Assembly: GCF_002240355.1 (NCBI RefSeq)
Contig: NZ_CP016353.1
Coordinates: forward strand, 2,778,501-2,842,500
Source of the DNA: Prauserella marina
Lineage (GTDB): Bacteria; Actinomycetota; Actinomycetes; Mycobacteriales; Pseudonocardiaceae
Direction: 5' to 3'
Length of the DNA stretch: 64,000 nt
The position numbers and the translations under genes were made by a program. Below are positions 15,043-64,000 of the stretch, in pieces (positions within the stretch are counted from its first letter, which is position 1; each line of letters opens with the position of its first letter). The notes beneath the pieces are model-generated. The model made no database searches and had not been told where the DNA came from. It worked only from the letters and a program-made list of their open reading frames with translations.

Positions 15043-15064
15043 GTCGTCTCCTTTGACGGGCGGA

Positions 15065-19184: not shown

Positions 19185-19284
19185 CTACCTCATCGGCAGT
19201 GGATGATCGGTCCATTCCCGGTCGATGCGTGGCGAACTAACCTCCTTCCCCGTACCGCAGCCACACCGAGGTGGGAGGGGCGCC

Positions 19285-41381: not shown

Positions 41382-41396
41382 TGACAACTATTATCA
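41382..41396. promoter_or_regulatory. Zur/Fur-type box A
   Basis: The 15-bp 7-1-7 inverted repeat TGACAACTATTATCA has TGA/TCA ends and matches its own reverse complement at 5 of 7 arm positions. The wider 19 bp (GATAAT..ATTATC) differs from the classical Fur box at only three positions. It ends 25 bp before the GTG of the methyltransferase. In actinobacteria iron is normally handled by IdeR/DmdR1, so Zur is the likelier Fur-family binder. Confidence 0.65.
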
Positions 41397-44074: not shown

Positions 44075-44089
44075 TGATAATCGTTTTCA
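44075..44089. promoter_or_regulatory. Zur/Fur-type box B
   Basis: TGATAATCGTTTTCA is a 7-1-7 inverted repeat with 5 of 7 arm positions paired. It matches box A under the consensus TGANAAY-Y-RTTNTCA. It sits in a 68-bp divergent gap, 28 bp from the reductase start and 25 bp from the flavoprotein start. Zn-loaded Zur bound there would silence both. Confidence 0.7.
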
Positions 44090-44114
44090 TATGATGTCCG
44101 ACAGAGGAGTGAAC

Positions 44115-45049: not shown

Positions 45050-47011
45050 TCACGCGTCGACCGGGTCCGGCTTGGCCGCTCTGGCCAGTCCGGACACGGT
45101 GGGCGCGTCGAGAAATTCGCGCACGCCGACGCTGATTCCGTGCCGCTTGGCGAGAATGCCGAGCACGCGCACGGCGAGCAGCGAATCGCCGCCGAGCGCG
45201 AAGAAATCGGCTGCCCTGTCGATGGCGCTGACCGCGAGCGCGGCCTCCCACACGGCGGCGATCGTCCGCTCGGTCTCGCCGATGGGCGCTCCGGGTTCGT
45301 CCGCGGATTGCTGCCGTGCGTAACCGCCGATCCTGGCGCTTCCGGCATGGAAGGCCGGTTCGGGGTCGGCGGGGACGGCGACGGGCCCTGCCCACGCCGC
45401 CGCGTCGGCCAGACTCCGTGCCAGCGCGGTGAGCTCGTCGAACATATCGTCCACCATGGACGGTTCGAAGAGTTCTTCGACAAGGGAGAACACGAGGAAC
45501 ATCTCCTCGTCCAGTTCGAACATCCGCACTTCGAGCGCGACCTGCGGGGTTCGCAGCTGTTGCTCGTGGTCTGCCATGTCGATGCGACCGAGTGGCCCCG
45601 CGCTGTGCGGTACCCGCTCGCCCATCGCGGCGTCCATGCCCAGTGTGCTCTGGAAGACGATCGGGGCCACCGGCCGGTGGGTGCCCCGTCGTCTGCCCAG
45701 TTCGCGCGCGACCTCGACGCCACTGACCAGGTTGTGTGCGGCGGAATCGCTGAAGCTCCGCTGACAGCTCGCGGCGAGCGTGGCGAAGTCGGTGCCATTC
45801 GTGAGTTCCACCGGGATCAGCATGGTCGAGGCGAACGCGCCCACGATGCGGTGCACGTCGGGGTGTAGCGGCAGCCGGTTGAGTTGCAGCGAGTTGAGCA
45901 GCATCCGGTGGTGCCCCGCCTTGCGGGCGAGCACGATGGCGTAGGCGGTGAACATCGCCGCCGATGGCGTCACGCCGTGCGCCGCGCACCGCGCGCGTAC
46001 CGCCGCCCACGTCGCGGCGTCGATCGTCACCTGCCTCGTGCCCATCAGCGACGGCCGCACCTCGCGCGGGTCCGCGCGCAGCGGCAGCGCGGGCGGCCGC
46101 GGGAAATCGTCGAGCCGGTCGAACCACCAGTCGCGGTCGGCTTCCCACGCCTCGGTGTCCGGAAGACCCGACACGGCGGCAACGTAGTCGCCGTAGTCGA
46201 TCTCAAGGGGCGGCAGCATCGCGTTCCAGTCCGCGACGAGCGTGAACAGGTCGCGATAGAACACGTTCGACGACCAGCCGTCGATGATCAGCAGACTGAC
46301 GGCAGCGTGCAAACGTGCCCTTTCACCTGGCAACAGGGTCAGGCACATGGCCACGCCGGGCCCCTCCACGGGATTGGGCCCGCTGGTGGACATCCGCGCG
46401 CGAATACCTGCCAGTATCTCCTCGGCCTCGCCGGGCGGGGTGTCCTGCAGATCAAGGACTTCCAGCAGAGGCACCGCACCGGGATCGTCGGCGGGAAGGA
46501 TGCGCTGGGTGCCGTCGGACGATATCCGGGCGCGCAGCGTCGGCTGATGCCGCACGAGCCGGGCCAGCGCGTCCTGGAGCGCCTCGGCCGCCTCGTCCGG
46601 ATCGACGTCGCTGAGTCCGATGTCGACGTAGTGATGCGCCGAGGCGTACGACAGTTCCCAGCCGTCCTGCTGGCCCACGAAATACCCCTGCTGCAAGGGA
46701 AGCAGCGGGAACGGTGCGGCAGGGTCGGCGCGCCTGGTGACGTCGATGGGCACGGCGCGGTCGTCGTCCGCGCCCGCGCGGCGGCGTTCGACCAGCTCCG
46801 TCAGTTCCCGCAGCGTCGTCTCGACCCTGACATCCGACAGCGCCAGCGCGACCCCGAGCTTGCGGCGTACCAGCGCGGACATGCGCACCGCCAGCACGGA
46901 ATCCCCGCCGAGGTTGAGAAAGCCGGTGTCGGAAGGTATTTCGGCCGGTTCGAGGCCGAGCAGGCCGGACCAGATGTCGGTCAGGGTTTCGGCGATGGTG
47001 GGTTCGGTCAT
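45050..47011 (-). CDS. NRPS: carrier-heterocyclization-carrier
   Basis: The 653-residue protein has PCP1 (Ser38 in LGGDSV), a Cy/condensation domain (about 98-530) and PCP2 (Ser610 in FFALGGDSL). There is no adenylation domain, so cysteine must be loaded in trans. The Cy domain has FPLLPLQQGYFVG at its start and the second aspartate of DxxxxD (Asp244), but the first is Ser239. This layout equals the PCP1-Cy2-PCP2 half of HMWP2 cut out as its own protein. ATG at 47011 lies 2 bp after the methyltransferase stop, with AGGGG upstream. It is the last gene of the megasynthase operon. Confidence 0.9.
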   Translation of the reverse strand: MTEPTIAETLTDIWSGLLGLEPAEIPSDTGFLNLGGDSVLAVRMSALVRRKLGVALALSDVRVETTLRELTELVERRRAGADDDRAVPIDVTRRADPAAPFPLLPLQQGYFVGQQDGWELSYASAHHYVDIGLSDVDPDEAAEALQDALARLVRHQPTLRARISSDGTQRILPADDPGAVPLLEVLDLQDTPPGEAEEILAGIRARMSTSGPNPVEGPGVAMCLTLLPGERARLHAAVSLLIIDGWSSNVFYRDLFTLVADWNAMLPPLEIDYGDYVAAVSGLPDTEAWEADRDWWFDRLDDFPRPPALPLRADPREVRPSLMGTRQVTIDAATWAAVRARCAAHGVTPSAAMFTAYAIVLARKAGHHRMLLNSLQLNRLPLHPDVHRIVGAFASTMLIPVELTNGTDFATLAASCQRSFSDSAAHNLVSGVEVARELGRRRGTHRPVAPIVFQSTLGMDAAMGERVPHSAGPLGRIDMADHEQQLRTPQVALEVRMFELDEEMFLVFSLVEELFEPSMVDDMFDELTALARSLADAAAWAGPVAVPADPEPAFHAGSARIGGYARQQSADEPGAPIGETERTIAAVWEAALAVSAIDRAADFFALGGDSLLAVRVLGILAKRHGISVGVREFLDAPTVSGLARAAKPDPVDA

Positions 47012-47013
47012 GG

Positions 47014-48141
47014 TCACCCCTGGTGGTCGGTTTCGGACGTGCGGACGGCGAAGACGTGCTGGGCCAGCGCGGAAAGCGGCCCTTCCGGATCGGGAAGGTC
47101 GAGTTCGGGCCGGTACCCGTGCACGGCCAGCAGGCCAAGCCATTCGTTTCTGGTCAGGAAAATCCGGTCGGTGCCCGCCCTGACGTCGCCGGTGCCGGGG
47201 CGGATCCCGCCGGCGCGCGGGGACATGAGGAACTGCATGGACGTCAACGCCTGGTAGTGCTCGCGGCAGGACTCGATCACGACGAGGAGCCCGCCGGGCG
47301 CGAGTACCTTCCTGAGCCGGTCCAGCAGGTGCCCGGCGTGCACGGCGTTGTGGAGGACGTTCGCCGCGAGCACGACGTCGAACGGGCCGGGAAGCGGCCC
47401 GGTGTTGATGTCGGCGATGGCGTAGCGGAGCCGGTCGCCGAACCGCTGCCTTCCCGCGTCGAGGAAGAACCGCGACACGTCGGTGAACAGATAGTCCACA
47501 TCGGACTCGGCGAGCGCGGCGACGACGGCGGCCGTCGTCCCGCCCACGCCGGCGCCGAGTTCGAGCACGCGAAGGGTGCCGGGTCCTCGGGCGGCCTCGG
47601 CGCGCAGGATCGCGGCCGTGGCGGCGTTGAGATAGCGGTTGATGACGTTGTCGCGGTAGGCGCCGTCCGCTGTCGCCAGGTCACCGTCGGGGAACAGCAG
47701 GGTTTGGACGGCGACGTCGTCGGTCAGCAACCTCGGCAGGTTGGCCAGCGCCGCGACGAAGAAGTCGCCCATTTCCCTGGGGTAGCCGAGTGCTTCGGCG
47801 GCGCGCGGGATGGTCGCGGCGGCCGCGTCGGCCTCCGCGCGGCCAACCGCGGTGAGGCCGTGGAGAAAACCGGTGTCCTCGTCGCGGTGCAGCAGTCCTT
47901 CCTCGCACAGCACCGTCAGCCAGCGCCGCAGCAGCCACCGGTGCCGCCGCGCTGCCCGCAGGCGGTCAGCGACCTGCTCCGCGCTGTGCCGCACGCCAGG
48001 CCGGAACAGTCCGCCTCTGCCAACGGCGCGGGCCATGGCGGGCAGCGCCGCCTCGTCGAGACCGCGCATCGCCGCGGGCAGCGCGGACGTGTCGACCTCG
48101 GCGATGGCCGCGTCGGCCTCCGCTCTCACGTCAGTCCACAT
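47014..48141 (-). CDS. Stand-alone PKS-type C-methyltransferase
   Basis: The 375-residue protein has an N-terminal helical part and then the linker typical of PKS-embedded cMT domains (LLFPDGDLATADGAYRDN, about 167-185, then NRYLNAATAAIL), followed by SAM motif I VLELGAGVGGTTAAVV (about 213). In HMWP1 an equivalent domain, between AT and KR, installs the gem-dimethyl on the malonyl unit. Here the PKS lacks it, so this enzyme probably acts in trans. It overlaps the upstream methyltransferase by 11 bp. Confidence 0.8.
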   Translation of the reverse strand: MWTDVRAEADAAIAEVDTSALPAAMRGLDEAALPAMARAVGRGGLFRPGVRHSAEQVADRLRAARRHRWLLRRWLTVLCEEGLLHRDEDTGFLHGLTAVGRAEADAAAATIPRAAEALGYPREMGDFFVAALANLPRLLTDDVAVQTLLFPDGDLATADGAYRDNVINRYLNAATAAILRAEAARGPGTLRVLELGAGVGGTTAAVVAALAESDVDYLFTDVSRFFLDAGRQRFGDRLRYAIADINTGPLPGPFDVVLAANVLHNAVHAGHLLDRLRKVLAPGGLLVVIESCREHYQALTSMQFLMSPRAGGIRPGTGDVRAGTDRIFLTRNEWLGLLAVHGYRPELDLPDPEGPLSALAQHVFAVRTSETDHQG

Positions 48142-49468
48142 CGGACACCTCGGTGCCGAGGTCGATGTCGACCGGCAGGAGGGGCAGCCCGGCACGGCGC
48201 AGCTCGCGACGGGCGAGTTCGGTGAGCCTGCGCCGCACGAACGCGGGCAGCGGCTCGTGAGCGAGGCCCTTCCCCGCGAGATCACGCACGCGCCGGGTGG
48301 CTGCCCCCGGCGTGCCTGCCTCCAGTAGCCGTGGGTCGTGCGGGTCGAGCGTCACCACCACGTCGAGTTCGGCCAGCGCTTCCCGTAGCCCGGCAGGGGT
48401 GCTGCCGTGGCCGGGCGGCAGCAGCGCGTTCGGGATTCCCGTGATCAGCCCCGGGCCAGCGGCCAGCCGGTCGTGGGCGGCGCCGAGTGTCGTCCACGCC
48501 GTCGTTTCCGGCCTGTCGTCGGCGACTGCGGCACAGCCGGTGGCGGGGACGTGGAGGACGGCGTCGAAGCGGTAACGGGTCAGCTCGGTGTCGGCTCGCA
48601 TGGTCTTGGCGTGGATGGTGATCCCGGCGTCGCCAATCTCGGTACCCAGTTCCGCGGCGATCCCGGCCAGCAGAACCGGGTCGAACAGCAACTCCTCGTC
48701 ACGCTCCGCCCGCTCGCCGACGGCTGTTTCCGTGTCGCCGCCGAGCCAGCGGTGATGTTCGCGCAGCAGACCGGAATGCCGGACGTCGCCGACGATCACG
48801 GTGCCGCCGGGGACGACGAGGCGCAGCGCGTCCTGGATGACGGCGCGGAGGTAGGCCACGTTCGGAAAGCACTGGGTCACCGAGTTGATCAGCACGCAGT
48901 CCGGTCTGCCACCGGGAAAACCGGCGGTCCTCAGCGCGTCGGCGACGGTGGGGCCAAGCGCCTCGTGTGCCGCTGCCCGCACGATCAGCGCGCCACGCGG
49001 CGCCGAGGCCGACACCGTGCGCACGGATTCGGCGGCGACGTCGGTGCCGACGTAGCCTTCGAGTCGCGGCATTAGCCGGTGCGGCAGCATTCCCGTGCCA
49101 CAGCCGAGTTCGAGTACCCATCGCGGGCCTGCCGCCAGTACGATCTCGACGGTGTGGCGCAGCCAGTCCCGCATGTGCTCGACGGGGTAGGGCAGGCCGG
49201 TGTCGGAGGCGCGCCAGCCGGACAGATCGAGGTCGGCGGACCGTCTGCCCGCGCCTCGCGCGTACGTCAAGTCGTAGACCTCGCTCCACTGGCCGAGGTG
49301 TTCCGCGATGAGAGCGCCGGGTACCGGCCGTACGGCCAGCGCCCCGGGTGCGGGCCGCAACCGCACCCCGGCACCGTTGTCGGCGGGAACGTCGGCGGCC
49401 CCGATCCACGGATGGGCGCCGAGGATCTCGGCGGCTTTGCGCGACGTGGCCGTGTCTTCACAGGGCAA
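48131..49468 (-). CDS. Stand-alone NRPS-type methyltransferase
   Basis: The sequence carries the hallmarks of methyltransferase domains normally embedded in NRPS modules: WSEVYDLTYA, the segment LDLSGWRASDTGLPYPVEHM, WVLELGCGTGMLPHRL, VLINSVTQCFPNVAYL, GGTVIVGDVRHSGLL and the late ELTRYRFDAVLHV. The TTG at 49468, eight bases after GGAG, is preferred (445 residues). It overlaps the ABC ATPase stop by 11 bp. Upstream ATG starts would overlap the ATPase far more. It plausibly replaces the second HMWP1 methyltransferase, which methylates a thiazoline carbon. Confidence 0.82.
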   Translation of the reverse strand: MPCEDTATSRKAAEILGAHPWIGAADVPADNGAGVRLRPAPGALAVRPVPGALIAEHLGQWSEVYDLTYARGAGRRSADLDLSGWRASDTGLPYPVEHMRDWLRHTVEIVLAAGPRWVLELGCGTGMLPHRLMPRLEGYVGTDVAAESVRTVSASAPRGALIVRAAAHEALGPTVADALRTAGFPGGRPDCVLINSVTQCFPNVAYLRAVIQDALRLVVPGGTVIVGDVRHSGLLREHHRWLGGDTETAVGERAERDEELLFDPVLLAGIAAELGTEIGDAGITIHAKTMRADTELTRYRFDAVLHVPATGCAAVADDRPETTAWTTLGAAHDRLAAGPGLITGIPNALLPPGHGSTPAGLREALAELDVVVTLDPHDPRLLEAGTPGAATRRVRDLAGKGLAHEPLPAFVRRRLTELARRELRRAGLPLLPVDIDLGTEVSDVD

Positions 49469-50864
49469 TGGGGTTCTCCGATCGTCGGGGTGTGTGGTCG
49501 GTACCGGGCAGCCGCAGCGTCCGGTCGGCGCGCGCCGCGATGTCGCGGTCATGGGTCACGAGCAGCACGGCTAGCCCGTTTCGGCGCAGTTCGTCGAGCA
49601 CATCGAGCACACCGAGGGCCGCCTTCTCGTCGAGTGCCGAGGTGATCTCGTCGGCCAGCAGCACCTCGGGACCCGCCGCGAGGGCGCGGGCGATCGCGAC
49701 CCGCTGCCGTTGTCCCCCGGAGAGTTCGCGGGGAAAGCACCGGTCCGCGCCGGGAAGGCCGACGGCGGTGAGCAGTTCGCTCGCCTGAGCCCGTGCGGCC
49801 GCGCGCGAGAGCCCGCGCGCGACGCGTGCCGCCCGCGCGACGGAGGCACCTGCGCGGTAGGCCGGGTTGAGCGCGTCCGCCGGATTCTGGGCGATCAGTT
49901 GCACGGCGCGCAGTTGCCGTGGAGTGCGGTCGGCGAGCCGGGCCGGGAGGTGCGTGCCGTCGAGCCGCAGCGCGCCGGAGGTCGCCGGATGCAGACCGGC
50001 CAGTGCCCGCAGGAGAGTGGTCTTGCCGCACCCGGATTCCCCGAGTACGGCCGTCAGTTCGCCTCGGCGCAGATCGAGTGACGTCCCTTCGAGGAAAGGC
50101 CCGCCGCCGGGATGGCCGACGACAAGGCGCGAGGCCGACAACGCGACGTCGCCGGGCTTCGGGCCGCGCGAGCCGGAGACGGGCGGTCCGGGAGCGGGTT
50201 CGGGTCCGCCGAGGCGGATGACGCGGTCGGCGACGCGATCGGTGAACGCGCGGTCGTGGGAGACGACGATCGTGGCGGCCAATGGCAGGTGGGCTCGCCG
50301 CGCCGCGAGCAGATCCGCGACGAGGCCGAGCGTGTCCGCGTCGAGCGCGCTCGTCGGTTCGTCGAGGATCAGCAGCCCCGGCTCTCCCGCAATGGCGCGG
50401 GCGAACGCGACGCGCTGGGCCTGTCCGCCGGAGAGCTGGTGAGGCCGTCGTCGCCACAGTTCGGCCGCGTCGAGTCCGAGTAGTTCCAGTGCCGAACGGA
50501 TCGCCAGGAGCCCCGGCGCGCCCGGGCCTTCGGCGACGAGCCGGTGGACGGGGTGCGCCGGGTTCAATGCTCCTGCCGGATCCTGGCCGAGGAAACCGGT
50601 GGTGTGCCTGCGCCATCGTCGCGCCGACCGTCCGGAATGGACGATTTCGCTTCGCCACGAGACGGTTCCCGCCGTGCGGGTCAGGCCGTCCGGAAGCGCG
50701 TCGAGGATCGCGCGCAGCAGTGTCGACTTCCCGCACCCGGACGGCCCGGTGATCGCGACGATCTCGCCGGGCGCCGCGCGCAGCGACGTCGCGGGCAGCA
50801 CCACGTCTCCCGCGACGTCGTGCACCGCGATGCCGTCCACGGCAAGGCCGAGGCCGCCGTTCAT
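49458..50864 (-). CDS. Fused double ATPase of a peptide/nickel-type ABC importer
   Basis: The 468-residue protein contains two complete ATPase domains. The first has Walker A GPSGCGKST (about 40) and LSGGQAQR with DEPTSALD. The second has GESGCGKTT (about 280) and LSGGQRQR with ADEITSALD. It is a DppD-DppF/NikD-NikE fusion. ATG at 50864 overlaps the permease stop by 4 bp. It powers the adjacent importer, whose family includes NikABCDE and the staphylopine importer CntABCDF. Confidence 0.92.
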   Translation of the reverse strand: MNGGLGLAVDGIAVHDVAGDVVLPATSLRAAPGEIVAITGPSGCGKSTLLRAILDALPDGLTRTAGTVSWRSEIVHSGRSARRWRRHTTGFLGQDPAGALNPAHPVHRLVAEGPGAPGLLAIRSALELLGLDAAELWRRRPHQLSGGQAQRVAFARAIAGEPGLLILDEPTSALDADTLGLVADLLAARRAHLPLAATIVVSHDRAFTDRVADRVIRLGGPEPAPGPPVSGSRGPKPGDVALSASRLVVGHPGGGPFLEGTSLDLRRGELTAVLGESGCGKTTLLRALAGLHPATSGALRLDGTHLPARLADRTPRQLRAVQLIAQNPADALNPAYRAGASVARAARVARGLSRAAARAQASELLTAVGLPGADRCFPRELSGGQRQRVAIARALAAGPEVLLADEITSALDEKAALGVLDVLDELRRNGLAVLLVTHDRDIAARADRTLRLPGTDHTPRRSENPIAL

Positions 50865-51655
50865 GCCTGCCTCCCGGTGTTCGTGCGGCGGCCGGCGTGC
50901 GCGGCCGTGGCGGCCATGGCACCGGCCACCACGGCCAGAACCAGCGCGGGGGCGAGCACACCGGCGGCGTTGAGACCGGAACCCGGCAGGTTCTCGCGGA
51001 TCATGAGTGCCCAGTCGGCCTGAGGCGGCTGCGTGCCGAAGCCCAGCAGGCTCAGTGCCGAGGCGAGCTGGATCGCCATGACGAACCGCATGCCCGCGTC
51101 GGCGGTCACCAGGCCCGACAACGACGGCAGGACTTCGCGCGCCAGCAGCACCGGGCCGCGTTCGCCTCGGCAGCGGGCCGCTTCGACGAAACCAGCACCC
51201 CTGGTCAGCCGGGTCGCGTCGCGCACGACCCGCAACGTCAGCGGCGTTCCCCCGCACACCGTCGCGATGACGACGGCGGCGGGACCGGGCAAGGCAACGG
51301 CGGCCACCAGCGCGATCAGCAACTGCGGCGCGGCAAGCAGCACGTCGGCCGAGGACGTCAGCGTCCGGGCCGTCCAGCCGTCCGACCAACCGGCCAGCAG
51401 CCCGCCAGCGACGCCCGTGGTGGTGGCGATCAGTGCCGCCAGCAGCGATACCAGCACGAGGTCCGAACCACCGGCGAGCACCCGCGAGAGCACGTCCCTT
51501 CCGAGCCCGTCGGTGCCCAGCAGGCCCGCCTCACCGGGCGCCGAATACGGCGGGCCGACGACGGTGGAAGGGTCGTGCGGCGCGAACAGCCCGCCCAGTA
51601 CGGCGAGCGCGACCACGGCACCGAGCACGGCCGCGACGACGAGGATCCGCCTCAT
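50861..51655 (-). CDS. Peptide/nickel-type ABC permease (DppC/NikC-like)
   Basis: The 264-residue protein has about six helices. The family N-terminal pattern FAPHDPSTVVGPPYSAPGEA is followed by GTDGLGRDVLSRVLAGG, the region just before the first BPD transmembrane core. The EAA-like loop ARCRGERGPVLLAREVLPSL is visible near residue 155. It overlaps both flanking genes by 4 bp. Confidence 0.92.
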   Translation of the reverse strand: MRRILVVAAVLGAVVALAVLGGLFAPHDPSTVVGPPYSAPGEAGLLGTDGLGRDVLSRVLAGGSDLVLVSLLAALIATTTGVAGGLLAGWSDGWTARTLTSSADVLLAAPQLLIALVAAVALPGPAAVVIATVCGGTPLTLRVVRDATRLTRGAGFVEAARCRGERGPVLLAREVLPSLSGLVTADAGMRFVMAIQLASALSLLGFGTQPPQADWALMIRENLPGSGLNAAGVLAPALVLAVVAGAMAATAAHAGRRTNTGRQA

Positions 51656-52569
51656 GCCCGTATCCCTCGCGCCAGATCCGCGACCGCCCCGCCGGTGACC
51701 ACGACGACCGCGCCGAGCAACGCGACGGCTTGCACCACCGGAACATCCCGCGAGGCCACCGAACTGACGAGCAGTTCACCGAGACCGGTGTAGCCGAACA
51801 CGGTCTCGACCACCGTCGTCGCGGCGATGAGCCCGCCCGCGATCACCGCGACGACCCTGATCGCCGGCGCCCACAACAGGGGAAGGGCATGCCGGGTCGC
51901 GATCCGCCATCTCGGAATGCCGCGCAGCACGGCGTCGTCGACGTGCGGGAGGGCGCGGACGTCGGCCACCGCGCCCGAGAGCAGGCCCGCACCGTAGGCC
52001 GCCGCGGGCAGCGCGAGCGAGAGAGCGGGCAGTACGAGCAACGCGGGGTCGTGCCACGGCGGCGCGCCGATGGGCAGCAGCGACACCCTCGGCAGCCAGC
52101 CGAGCAGCCCGGAGAACACGGCGACCGCCCCGGCCGCGACCACGACCTGCGGGATGGCCGCGACGGCGGCGAGTGCTCCGCCGCCGTACGAGCGCGCCGC
52201 GCGCCCCCCAGCCCACCAGGAAAGGGCCAGCAGCAGGGGAACGGCCACCACGAGCGCGCACGCCGCGAGCGTGAGCGTGGCCGGAAGCCGTTCACCGATC
52301 AATGTGGACACCGGGCGGTCGTTGAGCAGTGACGTACCGGCGTCTCCTCGCAGCAGCGCCCATCCCCATCGCGCGAACCGTTCCCATACCGGGCCGTCCA
52401 TTCCGGACTCGGCGCGCAACCTGGCCAGCTCGGCGGCGCCGGCGCCGCCGCGGGTGCGGGCGAGCGCGGCATCGCCTGGCAGGACGTCGGTCACGAGGAA
52501 CACGCCGACGGCCACCGCGAACAACACCAGCATCGCTCGCGCGCAGGCCCTCGGCACGACCCCGATCAC
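51652..52569 (-). CDS. Peptide/nickel-type ABC permease (DppB/NikB-like)
   Basis: The 305-residue protein has the DppB layout: an N-terminal helix, VLPGDAALARTRGG, an extracytoplasmic segment, then a core of about five helices and the EAA loop (AVLRGIPRWRIATRHALPLL, about 210-230), then ETVFGYTGLGELL. It overlaps the DppC-like gene by 4 bp and follows the binding-protein gene by 28 bp. Confidence 0.92.
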   Translation of the reverse strand: MIGVVPRACARAMLVLFAVAVGVFLVTDVLPGDAALARTRGGAGAAELARLRAESGMDGPVWERFARWGWALLRGDAGTSLLNDRPVSTLIGERLPATLTLAACALVVAVPLLLALSWWAGGRAARSYGGGALAAVAAIPQVVVAAGAVAVFSGLLGWLPRVSLLPIGAPPWHDPALLVLPALSLALPAAAYGAGLLSGAVADVRALPHVDDAVLRGIPRWRIATRHALPLLWAPAIRVVAVIAGGLIAATTVVETVFGYTGLGELLVSSVASRDVPVVQAVALLGAVVVVTGGAVADLARGIRA

Positions 52570-52597
52570 GCGGAACCTCCATCACACACGGCTTCGG

Positions 52598-54106: not shown

Positions 54107-54126
54107 CGGTGTCCTCGTCGGTTCGG

Positions 54127-57100: not shown

Positions 57101-60100
57101 AGTGGCAGCGCACCGTCGGTCGCGACGACACCAGCCGCGTGCACGACGACATCGAGGCCGTCGCTCCCGTCGGTACAAAGCTCGTCGAGCAGCGCTGCCG
57201 TGCCGTCGCCGTCGGCGGCGTCGAGCGTGCGGACGTCGATCTCGGCGCCTTCCTCGGCCAGCCGGTCGATCGCCGCGCGGCGGGGGCCGTCGTCGGGAAG
57301 GCCGGACCGGGATGTCAGGACCACGCGGCGGCCGGTGCTCGCGAGATACCGAGCGAGGGTCAGGCCGACGTCGCCGAGACCGCCGGTGACGAGCGCGGTC
57401 CCGCCGGGAGCCGCGCTCTCGTCGTCGCGCGGGTGCCACGGGACGAACGTGCGCGCGAACCGCGTGCCGCCCCTGAGCGCGACGTCGAGTCCCGATGCCG
57501 GGTCACCGGCGAGGTCGGCGAGTTCGCGGGCCACCGCGATGGCGGAGCCGGAATCGTCGTCGGCAGGCAGGTCGAGGGTGCGCCACCGGATACCGCGCAG
57601 TTCCTGGGCGAGCACGCGTGGCAGTACGCGTGCCGCCGAGGCGTCGGGCATCGCCTGGTCCCTGCCGTCGATCCGCTCCGCCGCTCGCGTCACCTGTAGC
57701 AGCAGGGGTGTCGCGACGGTGAGTGTGCGTGCCAGTTCGGCGTACTGCCCGACCGCGCCGATCGCCGACGTCGCCGGTACGACGACGACCCCGGTGAGTC
57801 CGGGTGTTTCCGGGGTGACCGCTGGAAGACATTCGGCGCCGAGCGCGGTGAGTTCCGCTCGAACGGACTCGGCGAGGGGATCGTCGCCGGAGGCAACGAC
57901 GAGCCACCGCCCGGTGAGCGAGGGGGGACGGGGCAGCGGCGGCAGCTGGTGCCACCGGGGGATCTGGAGCGGTTCGGCCGCGCCGGCACCGGCACCGCTC
58001 GTATCATCCGGCGTCGATGATGTGGTCGGTTCGATCCACAGTTCTCGGCGCTGGAAGGCATATCCGGGTGCGGCGATCCGCCTTCGGCTTCCATTGTGCT
58101 GGGCCGCGAAGTCGACCGTGACACCGTGAGTCCACAACCGGCCGACGGCGTCGCGGATCGAGACGGCGGCATCGGTCTCGTCCGCGGTGAACACCGGTAT
58201 CGCGTCGATCAAAGCGTCGAGCCGGTTGTGGCGGGCCAGCGCGGCGAGCGCTCCGCCCGGCCCCGCCTGGACGACGATCGCGGGATCGCCGCTGTCTCCG
58301 AGACAGGTGCGCAGCGCGTCGGCGAACCGGACGGGCTCGCGCAGTTGCCGGGCCCAGTGGTCGGCGGTGAACAGTTCGGCACCCGCGAGGCGTCCCGTCA
58401 CGGTCGTCACCAGCTCCGTGGTGAGCGGTCGGGGGCGCAGGCCGCCGGCCGCCGCGCGTACGGCCGGCACTGCCGGTTCGACCAGCCGGGAATGCAGTGC
58501 GGCGTCCACTCGCAGCTCCGACACCCGCTCGCCGTACTCGGCGGCGAGCACGGCCAGCCCCTCGCGTGGTCCCGACACGACGCAGGCTCCCGGCGCGTTG
58601 ACGGCGGCCAGGTCGAGGTCCGGATGCCGGGTGAGCACGTCCATGACGTCGTCCTCGGACATCCGCAGGGCGAGCATGCCGCCACCACCGGCCGCCTTGG
58701 CTGCCCGCGCGCAGCGCACGGCGACGAGTCTGGCCGCGTCGGGCAGCGTGAGCGCCCCCGCGACGACGGCGGCGGAGTACTCGCCGAGGCTGTGCCCCAC
58801 GACGGCATCCGGCCGCACACCCCAGCTCATCAGCAGGCGTGCGGTCGCGACCGAAGCGGCGAACAACGCGGGCAGCCCGAAACCAGCGTCCCTGACCAGG
58901 CCGGTGGACGCGGTCGCGGTGATCGCGTCGCGGACGTCGGCGCCGAGCAGCGGAGCCAGCAGCTCGGCACATTCATCCACTGTGGACCGGAAGACGGATT
59001 CTTCCTCGTAGAGGGTGGCGCCCATACCGAGGTACTGGCTGCCCGCGCCGGGGAAGGCGAACACGACGCGTGGTGTGGTCGCCGAGGACTTCACCGGGGG
59101 CGCGTCACGCAGCGCCGCGGGCGCCGTGCCAGGCCGCGTGGCCACGGCGACGCGATACGGCAGCTCCCTTCGTCCGGATTGGAGGGTGTGCGCGAGGTCG
59201 GCGGACACGGTGGTGTGCTCGGCGATCGCCGCCGCCGTGGCCTCGGCCGAGGCCCGGTCGTGCGCGGAGGCGACGAGCAGCTGTGGCCGTTCGTCCTCAG
59301 TGGACTCTGGGCGTTCTGGTGGGGGACCGAGGACCAGGTGGGCGTTGGTGCCGCCGATGCCGAACGAGCTGACCCCCGCGTAGTCAGGGCCTTCCCAGTG
59401 CCGGGTGCTGGTGACCACCTCGAATGGCGATCCCGCGAGGCCGAGCAGGTCGTTGAGCGGTTCGGCGTGCAACGACGCGGGCAGCGTCCGGTGCCGGATC
59501 GCCAGCGTGGTCTTGATCAGCGACGCGACACCGGCCGCGGTGTTGGCGTGGCCGATGTTGCTCTTCACCGAACCGAGGCCGCACCACGCTGGGCCCGATT
59601 CGCCGAAGACCCGCCGGAGCGCCGCGATTTCCACCGGGTCGCCGAGCCGGGTAGCCGTGCCGTGCGCTTCGACATAGCCGATCTGGCCGGGTGTGACACC
59701 CGCGACGGCCTGAGCCTCGGCGATCACGCGCGCCTGGCCGCGCAACGACGGCGCGGTGAAACCGGCCTTGTCCGCGCCGTCGTTGTTGACAGCGGTGCCG
59801 TGCACGACGGCGAGAACCGGGTCTCCGTCGGCGAGCGCGTCGGCGAGCCTGCGCAGAACGACGACACCGACGCCTTGGGAGTACACGATTCCCGTGGCAT
59901 CGGCGGAGAACGGGCGCACCGTACCGTCGGCCGAGTAGATGCCGTCCGCGACGTGCAGGTAGCCGTGGCCCTGCGGAACGATCAGCGAGACACCGCCCGC
60001 GATGGCCGTGTCGCATTCCTCGTCGAGTAGCGACTGCGCGGCGAGATGCACGGCGACGAGCGAGGTCGAGCAGGTCGTGTTGACGGCGATCGCGGGCCCG

Positions 60101-60597
60101 GTGAGGTTCAGCCGGTACGCCACCTGCAACGGCAGATAGTCGGTGTGCGTCGACATCGCGGTCTGGAGGCTGCCGATCGGATCGGCGCCTCCGCCCGTTG
60201 GGCTCCACCGGCCCGCGAGATTGCTCGTCAGGTAGGCGCTGTGCCCGGCTCCGGCGAACACCCCGACCGCGCCCGCGCCGGTACCGCCGCCGTGTCCTGC
60301 CTGTTCGAGGCCCTGCCACGCGGTTTCCAGGAACAGGCGCTGCTGCGGGTCCATGAGAGCCGCTTCGGCGCCGGTCAGTCCGAACGGGACAGGGTCGAAC
60401 CGGTCCTGGCCTTCGATGAGCCCGCCGACCGGGACGTAGCCCGCTTGTTCGCGCAGCCCGCGCGCGACGCCGCGCCGCGCCAGTTCCTCCTTCGAGAAGC
60501 GGGTGAGGCCCTCCCTGCCTTCGACGAGCTGCCGCCAGAACGAGTCCGCGTCGGGTGCGCCGGGAAAACGGCAGGCCACCGCCGTGATCGCGATCAT
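54127..60597 (-). CDS. Hybrid PKS-NRPS: KS-AT-KR-carrier-Cy-TE
   Basis: The 2156-residue protein contains KS (1-425; Cys176, His312, His350), AT (508-830; GHSLGEY with Ser603 and His702, a malonyl-type motif) and KR (880-1300; TGGLGDVG and Tyr1222). A carrier follows (about 1325-1395; Ser1361 in LGGHSL, PCP-like rather than ACP-like), then Cy (about 1420-1840; intact D1553xxxxD1558) and TE (about 1870-2145; GWSMGG Ser1948, His2116). HMWP1 of yersiniabactin synthesis (about 3,160 residues) has two methyltransferases and a PCP that are absent here. Only about 30 residues separate Cy from TE. Its ATG overlaps the upstream NRPS stop by 4 bp. Confidence 0.95.
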   Translation of the reverse strand: MIAITAVACRFPGAPDADSFWRQLVEGREGLTRFSKEELARRGVARGLREQAGYVPVGGLIEGQDRFDPVPFGLTGAEAALMDPQQRLFLETAWQGLEQAGHGGGTGAGAVGVFAGAGHSAYLTSNLAGRWSPTGGGADPIGSLQTAMSTHTDYLPLQVAYRLNLTGPAIAVNTTCSTSLVAVHLAAQSLLDEECDTAIAGGVSLIVPQGHGYLHVADGIYSADGTVRPFSADATGIVYSQGVGVVVLRRLADALADGDPVLAVVHGTAVNNDGADKAGFTAPSLRGQARVIAEAQAVAGVTPGQIGYVEAHGTATRLGDPVEIAALRRVFGESGPAWCGLGSVKSNIGHANTAAGVASLIKTTLAIRHRTLPASLHAEPLNDLLGLAGSPFEVVTSTRHWEGPDYAGVSSFGIGGTNAHLVLGPPPERPESTEDERPQLLVASAHDRASAEATAAAIAEHTTVSADLAHTLQSGRRELPYRVAVATRPGTAPAALRDAPPVKSSATTPRVVFAFPGAGSQYLGMGATLYEEESVFRSTVDECAELLAPLLGADVRDAITATASTGLVRDAGFGLPALFAASVATARLLMSWGVRPDAVVGHSLGEYSAAVVAGALTLPDAARLVAVRCARAAKAAGGGGMLALRMSEDDVMDVLTRHPDLDLAAVNAPGACVVSGPREGLAVLAAEYGERVSELRVDAALHSRLVEPAVPAVRAAAGGLRPRPLTTELVTTVTGRLAGAELFTADHWARQLREPVRFADALRTCLGDSGDPAIVVQAGPGGALAALARHNRLDALIDAIPVFTADETDAAVSIRDAVGRLWTHGVTVDFAAQHNGSRRRIAAPGYAFQRRELWIEPTTSSTPDDTSGAGAGAAEPLQIPRWHQLPPLPRPPSLTGRWLVVASGDDPLAESVRAELTALGAECLPAVTPETPGLTGVVVVPATSAIGAVGQYAELARTLTVATPLLLQVTRAAERIDGRDQAMPDASAARVLPRVLAQELRGIRWRTLDLPADDDSGSAIAVARELADLAGDPASGLDVALRGGTRFARTFVPWHPRDDESAAPGGTALVTGGLGDVGLTLARYLASTGRRVVLTSRSGLPDDGPRRAAIDRLAEEGAEIDVRTLDAADGDGTAALLDELCTDGSDGLDVVVHAAGVVATDGALPLRETGAEHIGRHLRAKAEGALALRSAIDRLPAERRPRVVVLMSSATTLVGGIGMGAYAAANAVLDGIAMSAMSGISEGSTRWVSAVWDGWSAGPLGEERAVVLDHALDAATGTAAFARLLDTETPPVVAVSATGLEHRMAAAATVRAQAGSTEITASTVSISDDPVRDAIASLWGELFGSPVTSADDDFFALGGHSLLATRMLAEIGERFGVQLRLRDVLANPTVAALGELVRASVQQPGPGPEHNGHTGIADDGTFPLTRVQHAYWVGRDGGYEWGDVPCHFYLEYECEGLDVAAYEHAWNRVIARHPLLRTIITGQGRARILDEVPPYRIRTHDLTDLSGQRREARLDRLRERVGRQPGPADRWPLAQVQAALLPGGRVRLFIGVDVLVCDAASWWIIDRELRHFYRAPDAELPDTGIGFPACVAALEQRREGEEGRRAAAYWRDRLTGLPGAPALPVDRGAVGSRFVRRSATLDAEAWAALRERAARYHLTPAAVLLTGYADALSAWTGDDRFAVVLTLFDRPAIHPGVAGVVGDFTSLVLHEVDRTRPVTFAERARKTQELLFADLDHRDFSALDVLSEKASLDGERVSVPVVFTSALGLDDVIGADHDPAWAGKQVAALSQTPQTLIDHQVLEQGGALLLQWDTLEPALPPAEVDRVFADYVARVHALIGAPWDGPGEPERGNELDELDDLSDDDIAVPIRAGSGEHTLFLLHPSGGDVVCYAELARLLDERVEVIALTDPGLAGGRGAEDVAAMAARFTGIIRRAQPHGPYLLGGWSMGGDLAHEVARGLDEAGEHVGLLVMLDSNDPRYITGIEGPAEEVRGTLVRRYLGALEAFTGAELGSEGPAPSWEGLDARLREARLLNRHDTARTRVAVFARHLRALAAYTPLPLEADTPALLLRATQRSPRNSGVGMGVDDVPGAPRDLGWAAYLTAAPKVADIDAHHYSMLRHPALPQVAAELNAAIEAAIRRGAPERPARPTGPRA

Positions 60598-63500
60598 CGA
60601 AGGAGCTCCCGTGCCCGTGCCCGGGCCGTGGCTCGCCCACGGCCCGGGTCCGGGGGCGGTGCTGGGGAAGCTTGGGATATGACGTCGTTTTCGCGCGCGG
60701 TGGAGCCGATCCGGTCGGCGATGACCGCGGCGAGATCGTCGGCGGTGGCGTTGGCGAGCAGGTCGACGACGGTGAGTTCGGGGTCGATCTCGGCGCTGAG
60801 TTTCCGCTGCGCTTGCACGAGCGTGAGTGAGGTCGCCCCGAGTTGGAAGAACGGTGTCGATCCGTCGATGTCGGTGCGCAGCAGTTCGGCGAACACGCGG
60901 CGGACCGCGTCACCGGCTCGCCGCAAGGCCGTTCCGCCGCGCCGGGCCGGCTCGGCGCTCGCGTGGGGCTGGGCAAGCGCGAGTGTTTCGGCGCCGGGCG
61001 GGTCGGCGCTCAGCGCGAGTTCGACCAGTGTGCCGTCGCGCTGTCTCTGGCGGGGACTCAGCCCCTCGGCCGTCGCGGTAGTCAGCAGTCGGCGTCCCTG
61101 CTCGCCCGCCGCGCTCATTCCGTCCACAAGGGACAGCGAGCCCGCGCTGAGCGTGATCGTGACGTCGAGGCCGCTGCGGCACGCCTCGGCCAGCGCCTCG
61201 GCGAGCGCGCCGGGCGCGGGTGCCTCGGACGTCACCTCTGGCACCGTCGCTTCGCCTCGGGCGTAGGGATTGCCAAGAGCCTGATAGTCGATCTTCCCGT
61301 TCGCGGTGACCGGGAACTCGTCCACTGGCACGAACCGGCTCGGCACCATGTACTCGGGAACGTGGGCCCGCAACCGAGTCCGCAGCTCCTGATCGTCGGC
61401 AACCGCGTCGCCGTGCCCCGCGACGTAGGCCACGAGCCGGGGTCGATCGTCGGGGCCGGGAACGGAAAGGGCGACCGATTTGCGGACGTCGGCGAGGCGA
61501 TCGAGCACCGACTCGACCTCGCCCAGCTCGATGCGGTGCCCCCGGATCTTGACTTGCCGGTCGAGCCTGCCGAGGAATTCGATGGTGCCGTCGTAGCGCC
61601 AGCGGCCCATGTCGCCCGTGCGGTACAACCTGCCGAGTTCGGGGTGGGTGATGAACCGTTCGGCCGTTTGCCGCGGGTCGCCGACGTAGCCTCGGGCCAG
61701 ACCGCCGCCACCGATGTGGAGTTCACCCGGCTGTCCAGCCGGTTTCGGGGAGCCGTTCTCGTCGAGGATGTGGAAACTCTGGCCGCGCAGGGCCCTGCCG
61801 TAGGGAATGCTGCGCCACGAAGGCGGAACCTCGCCGATGGGATGACAGATCGACCAGATCGATCCCTCGGTCGCCCCGCCGAGGCTCACCACCGTCGCCT
61901 CCGGCGCCAGCGCGCGGATGCGGTCGGGCAGGGTCACCGGAATCCAGTCGGCTGACAGGAACACCAGGCGCAGCGACGAGAACGCGGCGCGGGCGAGTCC
62001 GGGGTCGACCTCGGCGTACTCGACGAGCATCTCCATCAGCGCGGGGGCCGTGTTCCACAGCGTGACCCCGTGTTCGCGCATCAGTTCGAGCCAGTGACCT
62101 GGATCGCGTTGCCGCGCCGCCTCGGGGAGTACGAGCGCGCCACCGGTGCCCAGTACGCCGAAGACGTCGTGCACCGAAAGGTCGAAGCTGAACGCCGAGA
62201 GCGCCAGCATGCGATCCTCGGCGCGGAGGGGGAAGCGGTCGACCAGGTCGTCGATCGTGGTGCGCGCGGCGCGGTGCTCGATGGCGACGCCCTTGGGCTT
62301 GCCGGTCGAACCGGAGGTGAAGATGACGTAGGCGAGGTCGTCCGGCGCCGGTCTCTGGACATCGGGTCCTGGGACATCGGGTACCGGCACGGCGATGGTG
62401 CCGTCCTGGCGAAGGTCGTGCACGGTCACCTCGTCCGGCCAGCACCCGGACGTGCCACCGGCGACGAGCGCGTGACGGATACCGGCCTGCTCGCACACGG
62501 AGGCCACGCGGTTCGCGGGCCACGACGGTTCGACGGGCACGTACCCCGCGCCGCTCGCGCAAATGCCCAGCATCGCGACGATCTGCGCTGGACCCTTCTC
62601 AGCTGAGACCGCGACGAGGTCGCCCGGACCGAGGCCAAGACCCGCCAGCGCGGCGCCGGTGCGGGCCGCGAGGGCCGTCAGTTCCTTGTGGCTGAGGGTC
62701 GCTGAGGGCCCGAGCAGCGCATCGGCGTCCGGCGCCAGGTTACCGGCGGCGTGCAGCGGGTCTGGCAACAGCGGTCCCGCCGCGCCGAACGGCGTGACGT
62801 CGAGTGATTCGGAAGGCAGGAACGACGGATCCCAGCCGAGCACGCGGTCGGTCCACGCCGAGGGGTCGTCGGCGAGCCTGCGCAGCAGCCGCAGGTGAGC
62901 CGTGAGCATGCCCTCGATGAACCCGTCGGGGAACGCGCCTTCCACGGTGTCCCAGCAGAACGTGAGCGCGCCGCGCTCGACGTAGACGATGTGGTCGAAC
63001 AGCACCTGTGGCGTCTGGGAGATCCCGAAAACCTCCTCGCCGAGCCAGGCTGCGGGATCGTCGCCGGTGGCGAGGCCGAGACCGCTGGTGAACACGACCG
63101 GGTAGCGCGGTTCCGGGTTGCCCGCCGCCCGCAGCGCTTCCACGCCGGAGACCGAACGGTGATCCAGGTCTGTCCAGAATCGACGGTTGGTCCGCAGCGC
63201 GTAGTCGGCGAACCCGGACCATCGCGCGGGATCGAGCACCGGTAGTTCGACGAGGACCGTCGAGGTGAAATCGCCGAGTACCGCCGAAAGGTCCTGATCG
63301 TCGGGCCGGTCGAAAAGTGTCGCGTTGAGACAGAACGGTTCGGTGGACCCCCAGCGATTGAGGGTCAGTCCGAACGCGGCGAGCAGCAGGCCGGTGGGGC
63401 TGAGTCCGTGCTCGGCGGCGCGGGCACGCAGCGCCGACCATTCCTGGGGCGGCAGTTGTCCTTTCGCCCTGGTGAACCGGTGTCCCCTGAGTTCGTGCGC

Positions 63501-64000
63501 CTGCTCGGCGACGGGGAGCGCGGGCCCGCCGGGAAGGGTGCCGACACGGGAAGCCCAGTAGGCGAGATCCTCGTCCCTGCGCCGTCGCCGCGCCGGATCG
63601 GCTTCACGAGCGCGCACGATCTCGGCGAACGTCGTCGGCTGTGTGGGTAGTTCGGCAGAGGGGTCGCCGACGAGCGTGCCCCATTCGGCGAGCAGGTGCA
63701 GCCATCCGGCGAAGTCGACGGCGAGGACGTCGATGCCGAGACACAGCCGGGTCCGGCCGCCCGGAAGGAAGATGGCGCTGAGGTCGAACAGCGGCCAGGT
63801 GTCGGAGGGGCGCACCTGATGGGAACGGTCGTCGCGCAACCGGCGCGCGTGTTCCTCGGCTTCGGCGGAGTCGAGGTGGCGCAGATCGGTGACGTCGATG
63901 TCGTAGTGGGCGACGGTGCCGAGAACGCGCTGCCGCGCGTCGGCGCCGACGACCATGCGCAGCATCGGATGCCGTCGTACGAGCCGGTTCCACGCGGTGG
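60594..64000 (-). CDS. NRPS: heterocyclization-adenylation-carrier (5' partial)
   Basis: The frame is open to the right edge, so the start is outside the window. Numbering from the Met at 63965: Cy domain (to about 375; Asp79 and Asp84 of DxxxxD intact), A domain (about 415-900; FTSGSTGKPKG, YRTGD, GRLDRQVKIRG, catalytic Lys891) and carrier (about 1015-1090; Ser1046 in LGATSL). Read by eye, the substrate pocket is close to the Cys code (D, L, H, N, F, S, L, I, W, K), so cysteine is predicted. About 115 residues between Lys891 and the carrier have no familiar match. An aryl carrier may lie beyond the edge, as in HMWP2. Confidence 0.93.
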   Translation of the reverse strand, partial: TAWNRLVRRHPMLRMVVGADARQRVLGTVAHYDIDVTDLRHLDSAEAEEHARRLRDDRSHQVRPSDTWPLFDLSAIFLPGGRTRLCLGIDVLAVDFAGWLHLLAEWGTLVGDPSAELPTQPTTFAEIVRAREADPARRRRRDEDLAYWASRVGTLPGGPALPVAEQAHELRGHRFTRAKGQLPPQEWSALRARAAEHGLSPTGLLLAAFGLTLNRWGSTEPFCLNATLFDRPDDQDLSAVLGDFTSTVLVELPVLDPARWSGFADYALRTNRRFWTDLDHRSVSGVEALRAAGNPEPRYPVVFTSGLGLATGDDPAAWLGEEVFGISQTPQVLFDHIVYVERGALTFCWDTVEGAFPDGFIEGMLTAHLRLLRRLADDPSAWTDRVLGWDPSFLPSESLDVTPFGAAGPLLPDPLHAAGNLAPDADALLGPSATLSHKELTALAARTGAALAGLGLGPGDLVAVSAEKGPAQIVAMLGICASGAGYVPVEPSWPANRVASVCEQAGIRHALVAGGTSGCWPDEVTVHDLRQDGTIAVPVPDVPGPDVQRPAPDDLAYVIFTSGSTGKPKGVAIEHRAARTTIDDLVDRFPLRAEDRMLALSAFSFDLSVHDVFGVLGTGGALVLPEAARQRDPGHWLELMREHGVTLWNTAPALMEMLVEYAEVDPGLARAAFSSLRLVFLSADWIPVTLPDRIRALAPEATVVSLGGATEGSIWSICHPIGEVPPSWRSIPYGRALRGQSFHILDENGSPKPAGQPGELHIGGGGLARGYVGDPRQTAERFITHPELGRLYRTGDMGRWRYDGTIEFLGRLDRQVKIRGHRIELGEVESVLDRLADVRKSVALSVPGPDDRPRLVAYVAGHGDAVADDQELRTRLRAHVPEYMVPSRFVPVDEFPVTANGKIDYQALGNPYARGEATVPEVTSEAPAPGALAEALAEACRSGLDVTITLSAGSLSLVDGMSAAGEQGRRLLTTATAEGLSPRQRQRDGTLVELALSADPPGAETLALAQPHASAEPARRGGTALRRAGDAVRRVFAELLRTDIDGSTPFFQLGATSLTLVQAQRKLSAEIDPELTVVDLLANATADDLAAVIADRIGSTARENDVISQASPAPPPDPGRGRATARARARELLR

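What the first reader, a model, noticed from the sequence alone, without database searches (positions are those of the whole stretch)
45050..64000. Yersiniabactin-type assembly line split into separate proteins
Seen: Cy-A-PCP, KS-AT-KR-carrier-Cy-TE and PCP-Cy-PCP proteins, plus two free methyltransferases, in one overlapping operon. Known: yersiniabactin HMWP2 is ArCP-Cy-A-PCP-Cy-PCP and HMWP1 is KS-AT-MT-KR-ACP-Cy-MT-PCP-TE, with one A domain loading all three cysteine carriers. Inference: the same domain set is present here, including three PCPs and a single A domain, but redistributed into five or more polypeptides, giving a related thiazoline/thiazolidine metallophore. Gene order is not the order of use, so docking in trans is required.
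Basis: partly seen in the sequence, partly recalled or inferred. Interest (0 to 1): 0.88.

Follow-up and report, generated by a model that had tools for sequence, protein, structure and literature searches.

The report
Zinc-controlled assembly line with looped-out module
An actinobacterium carries a split, yersiniabactin-like enzyme assembly line that, judging from its switches and its importer, probably makes an unknown zinc-scavenging molecule, and related bacteria show that one piece of the line was cut out of the middle of a larger protein and must now work as a separate part.

Summary
The yersiniabactin reading is only partly right. (1) In 25 of 85 actinobacterial loci (84 distinct, window included) PCP-Cy-PCP sits inside the PKS protein between Cy and TE; in 54 it is separate. 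A rooted tree makes the split one derived excision, so the order of use is starter-Cys-polyketide-Cys-Cys, not yersiniabactin's. The chain must leave the PKS protein and return to its TE. (2) No salicylate synthase or aryl-AMP ligase was found belonging to the cluster; 14 of 36 cluster-bearing genomes showed no such ligase. (3) Cy3 lacks the first motif Asp in 85 of 85 matches. (4) Two of only three exact matches to a published Zur-box core in the 6.99-Mb genome lie here; the 85 loci hold 28 (0.1 expected). (5) A DepH/GliT-type dithiol oxidase adjoins one of these boxes. Best reading: a Zur-controlled thiazol(in/idin)e, possibly thiol-bearing, zincophore pathway. Product and starter are unknown; structure prediction could not be run.

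The parts
60594..64000 (-). NRPS: N-terminal carrier - Cy1 - A (cysteine-type pocket) - PCP1; 1287 aa, continues to 64430 or 64457 outside the window
   Evidence: Pfam PP-binding x2, Condensation, AMP-binding; relatives 6lta, PchE, BmdB; pocket residues D-L-H-N-F-S-L-I read by eye from the PchE alignment, compared with the Cys codes tabulated in PMC3672683 (passages)
54127..60597 (-). PKS-NRPS hybrid: KS-AT-KR-ACP-Cy2-TE, 2156 aa; TE follows Cy2 directly, with no PCP between
   Evidence: Pfam; Cy2-TE gap 31 nt between matches
52598..54106 (-). Family-5 solute-binding protein, nickel/opine-importer-like, with a weak Tat-signal match and a lipobox-like AAGC (read by eye)
   Evidence: SBP_bac_5 246 bits, TAT_signal 20.8 bits, below cut-off; NikA/CntA-type NCBIfam matches, all below cut-off
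51652..52569 (-). ABC importer permease, NikB/Opp type
   Evidence: NCBIfam matches below cut-off
50861..51655 (-). ABC importer permease, NikC/Opp/CntC type
   Evidence: NCBIfam matches below cut-off
49458..50864 (-). Fused double ATPase, NikD-NikE type
   Evidence: frame 49458-51389, TIGR02769 233 bits, below cut-off, two stretches; ATG 50864 with ribosome-site-like sequence
48131..49552 (-). Free methyltransferase (473 aa), relative of an N-methyltransferase that interrupts an A domain
   Evidence: only solved relative at E<=0.01 is 5wmm, E 1.4e-28; nearest relatives lie mostly in short frames, more distant ones in long frames
47014..48141 (-). Free methyltransferase, relative of polyketide-synthase C-methyltransferases
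   Evidence: best solved relative CurJ, E 5.7e-28
45050..47011 (-). Looped-out module PCP2-Cy3-PCP3 (653 aa); Cy3 motif SxxxxDGWS
44091..45032 (+). FAD dithiol oxidase of the DepH/GliT family, CPFC motif; start ATG 44091 or 44094
   Evidence: best solved relatives DepH (two sequences), then 3fbs, 4ntd, 4fk1 and GliT; CxxC in 47 of 47 homologues examined; start read
44075..44089 (.). Zur box TGATAATCGTTTTCA between the divergent reductase and oxidase genes
   Evidence: exact match to the core TGaNAANNNTTNtCA given in PMC5472717
43027..44046 (-). Saccharopine-dehydrogenase-fold reductase, candidate thiazoline (imine) reductase
   Evidence: PF03435 32 bits; match in 47 of 54 split and 0 of 25 fused loci within the sequence held
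42308..43030 (-). Small methyltransferase (240 aa)
   Evidence: matches in 33 of 85 loci
41422..42321 (+). Methyltransferase (299 aa), possibly Zur-controlled; no match in the other loci held
41382..41396 (.). Zur box TGACAACTATTATCA, 25 bp before the 299-aa methyltransferase; it also overlaps the start of a divergent 176-aa ORF (40857-41387)

Best explanation
The locus is a Zur-controlled hybrid NRPS-PKS pathway for a cysteine-rich metallophore, most likely a zincophore. Order of work, inferred: an acyl starter on the N-terminal carrier is joined by Cy1 to Cys on PCP1; KS-AT-KR adds and reduces one ketide on ACP, with the free C-methyltransferase acting in trans; Cy2 passes the chain to Cys on PCP2. 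PCP2 sits on a separate protein, PCP2-Cy3-PCP3; Cy3 adds the last Cys on PCP3, and the chain returns to the TE at the end of the PKS protein. The single A domain must load PCP1, PCP2 and PCP3. Shown: domain content, orthology of each Cy, excision history, Zur-box-like sites, importer genes. Inferred: that Cy3 condenses without efficient ring closure, leaving a thiol that the DepH-like oxidase closes to a disulfide; that the reductase and N-MT-like enzyme make an N-methylthiazolidine; that the Nik/Opp-type importer brings the zinc complex back in.
For: Fused orthologues carry KS-AT-(KR)-ACP-Cy2-PCP2-Cy3-PCP3-TE in one chain (25 of 85 loci). The Cy2-TE gap between matches is 22-211 nt in the 26 of 54 split loci where both were found, and 1912-2161 nt in 25 of 25 fused loci. 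In a sample of 51 domains Cy1, Cy2 and Cy3 each form one supported group, and split Cy3 is a clade nested in fused Cy3; the 79-row tree needs one change. Zur: 3 exact sites in the whole genome, 2 here; 28 exact and 53 one-mismatch sites in 85 loci against 0.1 and 2.2 expected; 57 of the 81 sites lie near a cluster gene start. A family whose scanned member is CobW_C occurs in 9 loci, and one whose scanned member is FUR-type in 4. Cy3 changes. DepH/GliT kin. Importer.
Against: No product, metal binding or expression is known. The starter and its loading enzyme are unidentified. PMC9547227 (passages) calls the DXXXXD aspartates structural. Ser at the dyad Thr position also occurs in Cy1 (16 of 35) and Cy2 (11 of 56), so only the Ala form of Cy3 (52 of 82, the window's included) is a clear loss, and Glu for Asp may still work; a non-cyclising Cy3 is a guess. 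Of 52 split loci with a legible Cy3 motif, 39 show the oxidase and 13 do not within the sequence held, so a disulfide may not be general. Of the genome's 28 Zur-like sites outside the cluster I had the genes near three scanned: one lies in a metal-importer-like locus, one (exact, the third in the genome) by sigma-factor and AraC-type genes, one by GntR and FtsK-type genes. The site before the first NRPS gene has two mismatches. 24 of 81 sites were not near a cluster gene start.
Confidence: 0.62

Rival explanations
1. A yersiniabactin/pyochelin-type aryl metallophore whose aryl acid and aryl-AMP ligase are borrowed from another cluster in the genome (here the 2,3-DHB-type cluster near 4.79 Mb).
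For: The own genome has a DHB-AMP ligase over its cut-off; 22 of 36 cluster-bearing genomes have an aryl-AMP ligase match at E<=1e-120 against 35 of 396 in a phylum sample. Equibactin needs supplied salicylate (PMC3672683, passages).
Against: 14 of 36 cluster-bearing genomes show none at that threshold, among them two whose loci lie on contigs of 5.0 and 12.8 Mb. No salicylate synthase match in the 85 loci as held. Three of five cluster genomes examined, the window's included, have no salicylate synthase over cut-off. The first carrier matches Pks13 best, and none of 59 hits is named as an aryl carrier, HMWP2 or PchE. The excess over the phylum sample is confounded by lineage and genome size, and the two searches scored different numbers of candidates per genome (up to 29, and 3).
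Confidence: 0.27
2. Cy3 is a fully working cyclase with unusual residues, and the product has three thiazol(id)ine rings like yersiniabactin but in a different order.
For: Cy3 aligns over its length with EpoB, PchE and HMWP2 Cy. Ser stands at the dyad Thr position in 30 of 82 Cy3, as in 16 of 35 Cy1 and 11 of 56 Cy2; Asp stays at the dyad in 16 of 82.
Against: The first motif Asp is absent in 85 of 85 Cy3 matches (S 83, N 2), the dyad Thr position is Ala in 52 of 82, and the dyad Asp is Glu in 66 of 82, while Cy1 and Cy2 keep the motif Asp residues (34 of 34, 64 of 64) and the dyad Asp (34 of 34, 56 of 56).
Confidence: 0.42
3. The product is a zinc-dependent antibiotic or redox compound under Zur control rather than a scavenger.
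For: Compounds made beside GliT/HlmI-type oxidases include gliotoxin and the dithiolopyrrolone antibiotics (PMC8705807 and PMC3826145: search listing and abstract openings only; the pairing of oxidase and compound is recalled).
Against: A complete set of importer genes is part of the operon, and matches to its binding protein lie in 42 of 85 loci within the sequence held. No exporter gene was seen among the operon genes scanned in the window.
Confidence: 0.15

Closest known systems
Yersiniabactin synthetase (HMWP2/HMWP1)
   Same: One Cys A domain, three Cy, five carriers, KS-AT-KR, TE; methyltransferase functions; trans loading of carriers
   Different: Order here is starter-Cys-PK-Cys-Cys; three polypeptides; MTs free; TE reached after leaving and returning; no salicylate genes found; Nik/Opp-type importer; Zur boxes
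Piscibactin/photoxenobactin (pxb)
   Same: Yersiniabactin-related Cy/PKS line; Cy domains of unequal efficiency proposed (PMC9396620, abstract and passages)
   Different: An extra Cy-A-T module on the HMWP1-like protein and a salicylate enzyme there; here one A domain and an excised PCP-Cy-PCP
Equibactin (eqb) of Streptococcus equi
   Same: Yersiniabactin-like, single A domain for three PCPs, supplied salicylate needed (PMC3672683, passages)
   Different: No PKS part there; it has a salicyl-AMP ligase, a type II TE and a DtxR-like regulator
Coelibactin and sorangibactin
   Same: The SCO7676 and SCO7681/7682 promoters are Zur targets (PMC5472717, passages; that this is the coelibactin cluster is recalled); the sorangibactin cluster has a PF03435 reductase called indispensable (PMC10127202, passages)
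   Different: No PKS or looped-out module is described in the passages read; salicylate start; other release chemistry

Membership tests
Yersiniabactin-type synthetases | Domain inventory: single Cys A, three Cy, KS-AT-KR-ACP, TE | tested here: met
Yersiniabactin-type synthetases | Order ArCP-Cy-A-PCP-Cy-PCP / KS-AT-MT-KR-ACP-Cy-MT-PCP-TE | tested here: not met
   fused orthologues put PCP-Cy-PCP after ACP-Cy2
Yersiniabactin-type synthetases | Salicylate synthase and salicyl-AMP ligase in the cluster | tested here: not met
Yersiniabactin-type synthetases | Cy domains with DxxxxDxxS and an Asp-Thr dyad | tested here: not met
   Cy2 fits; Cy1 of the window fits except G for the last S; Cy3 does not (S first, Ala and Glu at the dyad)
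Zur-regulated zincophore pathways | Zur box at cluster promoters | tested here: met
   (sequence only; binding not tested)
Zur-regulated zincophore pathways | Product binds zinc and feeds it to the cell | not testable with these tools
   no product known
DepH/HlmI/GliT dithiol oxidases | TrxR-like protein with CxxC and closest kin DepH/GliT | tested here: met
Thiazolinyl imine reductases (Irp3/PchG type) | Match to a known thiazolinyl reductase family | tested here: not met
   no NCBIfam match at E<=0.01 and only weak, other solved relatives; a PF03435 reductase as in SrbE remains the analogy

The most novel reading that the evidence does not exclude
A widespread actinobacterial family of zincophores without an aryl cap, made by a line whose middle module was cut out and now works in trans. 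The third Cy domain condenses cysteine without closing the ring, so the molecule binds zinc through free thiolates and is stored or released as a disulfide made by a DepH-like oxidase under the same Zur switch.
Probability: 0.25. Interest if true: 0.86.

Novelty: new variant of a known kind. Interest (0 to 1): 0.7.

Why it matters
The fused and split orthologues form a natural experiment: the same module works inside one protein in some species and as a free piece in others, after what looks like a single excision. That makes the rules of carrier-to-Cy and carrier-to-TE recognition in trans directly testable, with natural before-and-after pairs. The Zur boxes name the growth condition (zinc starvation) under which the product should appear. 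Current genome mining finds metallophores mainly by chelator-synthesis genes (PMC12971057, passages); no salicylate or DHB-type gene was found to belong to this cluster, so such a rule would probably miss it.

Tried and rejected
Ordinary C domains instead of Cy: rejected. Aryl-acid genes next door: none found. The one aryl-AMP ligase match above 40% identity in the 85 loci lies at the edge of L102 (Actinomadura flavalba), beside other NRPS A domains, and is not taken as part of this cluster; the ligase found in the L101 genome lies on a stretch with no match to L101. A first attempt at the ligase and synthase searches used wrong strands for two queries and was redone. A 1,4-dihydroxy-2-naphthoate starter as in karamomycins (PMC12971057, passages) was considered: no menaquinone gene was among the nine recurring neighbour families scanned, and, as I recall, Streptomyces use another menaquinone route; left open as unlikely. 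Iron control was considered: an IdeR-type box recalled from memory gave 2 hits in the 85 loci at up to 4 mismatches of 19, without a shuffled control. Literature: nine searches listed no paper that I recognised as describing this cluster; the library holds open-licence papers only, and most hits were seen as listings. The structures of PCP-Cy-PCP and of the reductase could not be predicted.
Full report
The finding lies in an actinobacterial genome of 6.99 Mb (window = G000:C1:2778501-2842500). Its nearest named relative for the PCP-Cy-PCP protein is a Saccharomonospora record (82%).

Anatomy. The operon runs on the minus strand. The first gene begins at 64430 or 64457, just outside the window, and encodes an N-terminal carrier, Cy1, an A domain and PCP1 (1287 aa from the first ATG). 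The second encodes KS-AT-KR-ACP-Cy2-TE (2156 aa). Then come a family-5 binding protein, two permeases and a fused double ATPase of the nickel/oligopeptide importer type, whose NCBIfam matches are all below cut-off among those listed; two free methyltransferases; and PCP2-Cy3-PCP3. Junctions overlap or are short. A plus-strand flavoprotein converges on the operon's end and is divergent from a saccharopine-dehydrogenase-fold reductase followed by a small methyltransferase. The A-domain pocket reads D-L-H-N-F-S-L-I when aligned by eye with PchE, close to the Cys codes tabulated in PMC3672683 (passages). One free methyltransferase resembles an N-methyltransferase that interrupts an A domain (5wmm; that this is an interrupted A domain is recalled); the other resembles the CurJ methyltransferase.

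Relatives. A search of 397 genomes of the order with the 473-aa methyltransferase led to four further loci (G097, G224, G247, G234; a fifth candidate, G076, had no other cluster gene). A scan of genome contigs with the PCP-Cy-PCP alignment confirmed 91 relatives and kept 80, all actinobacterial by title. With the window this gives 85 loci. Most loci hold about 10 kb on either side of PCP-Cy-PCP, some less, so absence of a gene means absence from the sequence held.

Order of use. In G234 the PKS protein is KS-AT-ACP-Cy-PCP-Cy-PCP-TE in one chain of 2417 aa, with no KR match. Among the 85 loci 25 are fused, 54 split and 6 incomplete; split means that the PCP-Cy-PCP frame holds neither the ACP-Cy2 nor the TE match. 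In the 26 split loci where both were found the Cy2-to-TE gap between matches is 22-211 nt; in 25 of 25 fused loci it is 1912-2161 nt. A tree of 79 rows (six left out: one duplicate, two broken loci, three short) puts all 51 split rows on one side of a branch with SH-aLRT support 99. A second tree of 51 Cy domains (36 Cy3 that I chose, 8 Cy2, 7 Cy1), rooted on Cy1 and Cy2, shows Cy1, Cy2 and Cy3 as three supported groups (98, 99, 100) and split Cy3 as a clade (100) nested within fused Cy3; the fork that shuts the Nocardia-type fused rows out has 98, the next 88. Split is therefore derived, most simply by one excision, and the fused chain gives the order: starter-Cys-ketide-Cys-Cys. In the split lineage the chain must leave the PKS protein after Cy2 and return to the TE at its end. 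The PCP-Cy-PCP protein begins and ends within about ten residues of its carriers, so no obvious docking domain was seen; this was judged by eye in the window only.

Cy3. Cy1 keeps both motif Asp residues in 34 of 34 matches and Cy2 in 64 of 64. Cy3 has S (83) or N (2) for the first Asp in 85 of 85 matches. The position of the dyad threonine in Cy3 is A (52) or S (30) of 82; but S also stands there in 16 of 35 Cy1 and 11 of 56 Cy2, so only A is a clear loss. The dyad Asp is E in 66 and D in 16 of 82 Cy3, and D in 34 of 34 Cy1 and 56 of 56 Cy2. The window's Cy3 has S, A and E. The dyad (D1862, T1830 of HMWP2-Cy2) is taken from PMC9547227 (passages), which calls the DXXXXD aspartates structural; PMC3672683 (passages) cites them as essential for HMWP2 Cy1. 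I placed the dyad on our sequences by motif (GDFT; TPQxxLDH), not by structure. So Cy3 is a conserved, non-canonical Cy. That it only condenses is inference. The 16 loci with D/Q at the second site (14 fused, 2 incomplete, mostly Nocardia) have no flavoprotein oxidase match, while 47 of the 85 loci do: 39 of 52 split and 7 of 11 fused loci with E/R, and one incomplete. This is one lineage, so the link is suggestive only, and the 13 split and 4 fused E/R loci without the oxidase speak against its being general. The oxidase's best solved relatives are DepH (the top two hits), with GliT sixth.

Zinc control. PMC5472717 (passages) gives the 15-bp Streptomyces Zur motif and a 21-bp computed actinobacterial motif, whose central 15 positions I used as TGANAANNNTTNTCA. 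This core matches exactly three places in the whole genome; two are in this locus (41382 and 44075). At up to one mismatch there are 30 sites against 10 for the reversed pattern. Of those outside the cluster I had genes near three scanned: one lies in a locus with FecCD, ABC-3 and ABC ATPase genes, as expected of a zinc importer; one (the third exact match) by sigma-factor and AraC-type genes; one by GntR and FtsK-type genes. In the 85 loci there are 28 exact and 53 one-mismatch sites against 0.1 and 2.2 expected from a first-order Markov model (ten resamples a locus); 26 loci hold an exact site and 66 at least one of either kind. Of the 81 sites, 57 lie within -60 to 350 nt of a cluster gene start, chiefly the oxidase-reductase pair and the first NRPS gene, and 24 do not; some of the 24 lie at genes of the CobW family. 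A neighbour family whose scanned member is CobW_C occurs in 9 loci and one whose scanned member is FUR-type in 4. The site before the first NRPS gene (64467-64481, outside the window) has two mismatches to the 15-bp Streptomyces motif, counted by eye. No binding was tested.

Starter. No salicylate synthase match (E<=1e-5) was found in the 85 loci as held, and none over cut-off in the own genome. Of five other genomes examined, G234 and G247 have one over cut-off elsewhere in the genome; one of the five, G076, lacks the cluster. Aryl-AMP ligase matches at E<=1e-120 were found in 22 of the 36 cluster-bearing genomes tried (of 80 loci held) and not in 14. In a phylum sample the figure was 35 of 396. 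The two searches scored different numbers of candidates per genome (up to 29, and 3), and the cluster genomes are large, so the excess is hard to read; absence in 14, some of them drafts, is the firmer result. The first carrier matched Pks13 best. The starter is therefore open: an acyl group from general metabolism, a borrowed aryl acid, or cysteine itself.

Conclusion. I rate the looped-out order at about 0.85, Zur control at about 0.85, a zinc metallophore at about 0.7, and a non-cyclising Cy3 with a thiol or disulfide product at about 0.35. These are judgements, not computed values.

Noticed in passing
G000:C1:4776001-4796500 (L044, L007, L008): A separate cluster with a 4762-aa NRPS frame, a DHB-AMP ligase over its cut-off and, next to it, an isochorismate-synthase-like gene (below cut-off for salicylate synthase): the likely catechol siderophore of this strain.
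   Followed up: partly
G000:C1:2236696-2236738 (L162): Two Zur-like sites 28 bp apart, one exact and one with one mismatch, between or at the starts of a sigma-70 factor gene and an AraC/DJ-1 type regulator gene.
   Followed up: partly
from the window's end to about 8 kb beyond (L002): DUF5134, PepSY_TM, ferric-reductase-like, VKOR, DsbA-like and CtaG/CopD genes lie just upstream of the operon: a metal or redox neighbourhood. DUF5134 and PepSY_TM had no match in the other loci held, though many do not reach that side.
   Followed up: partly
window 41422-42321: A methyltransferase with an exact Zur box before it; none of the other 84 loci held a match.
   Followed up: partly
G234, L119, L121, L123 and other Nocardia loci: The fused Nocardia version mostly has no KR match, adds OsmC, acyl-CoA-dehydrogenase-like and MaoC genes (families found in 13, 11 and 10 loci) and, in G234, a berberine-bridge-like gene, and shows no binding-protein, oxidase or PF03435 reductase match: probably a different product.
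   Followed up: partly
L087:10001-11935: The match to PCP-Cy-PCP in Kineosporia babensis contains one stop codon.
   Followed up: no
L071 and other Actinomadura loci: Matches to the C-methyltransferase-like gene at two places in one cluster, one beside PCP-Cy-PCP and one beside the importer genes.
   Followed up: no
window 8144-21479: PEPCK, enoyl-CoA hydratase, CoA-transferase, hydantoinase A and B, HMG-CoA reductase and HMGL-like genes.
   Followed up: no
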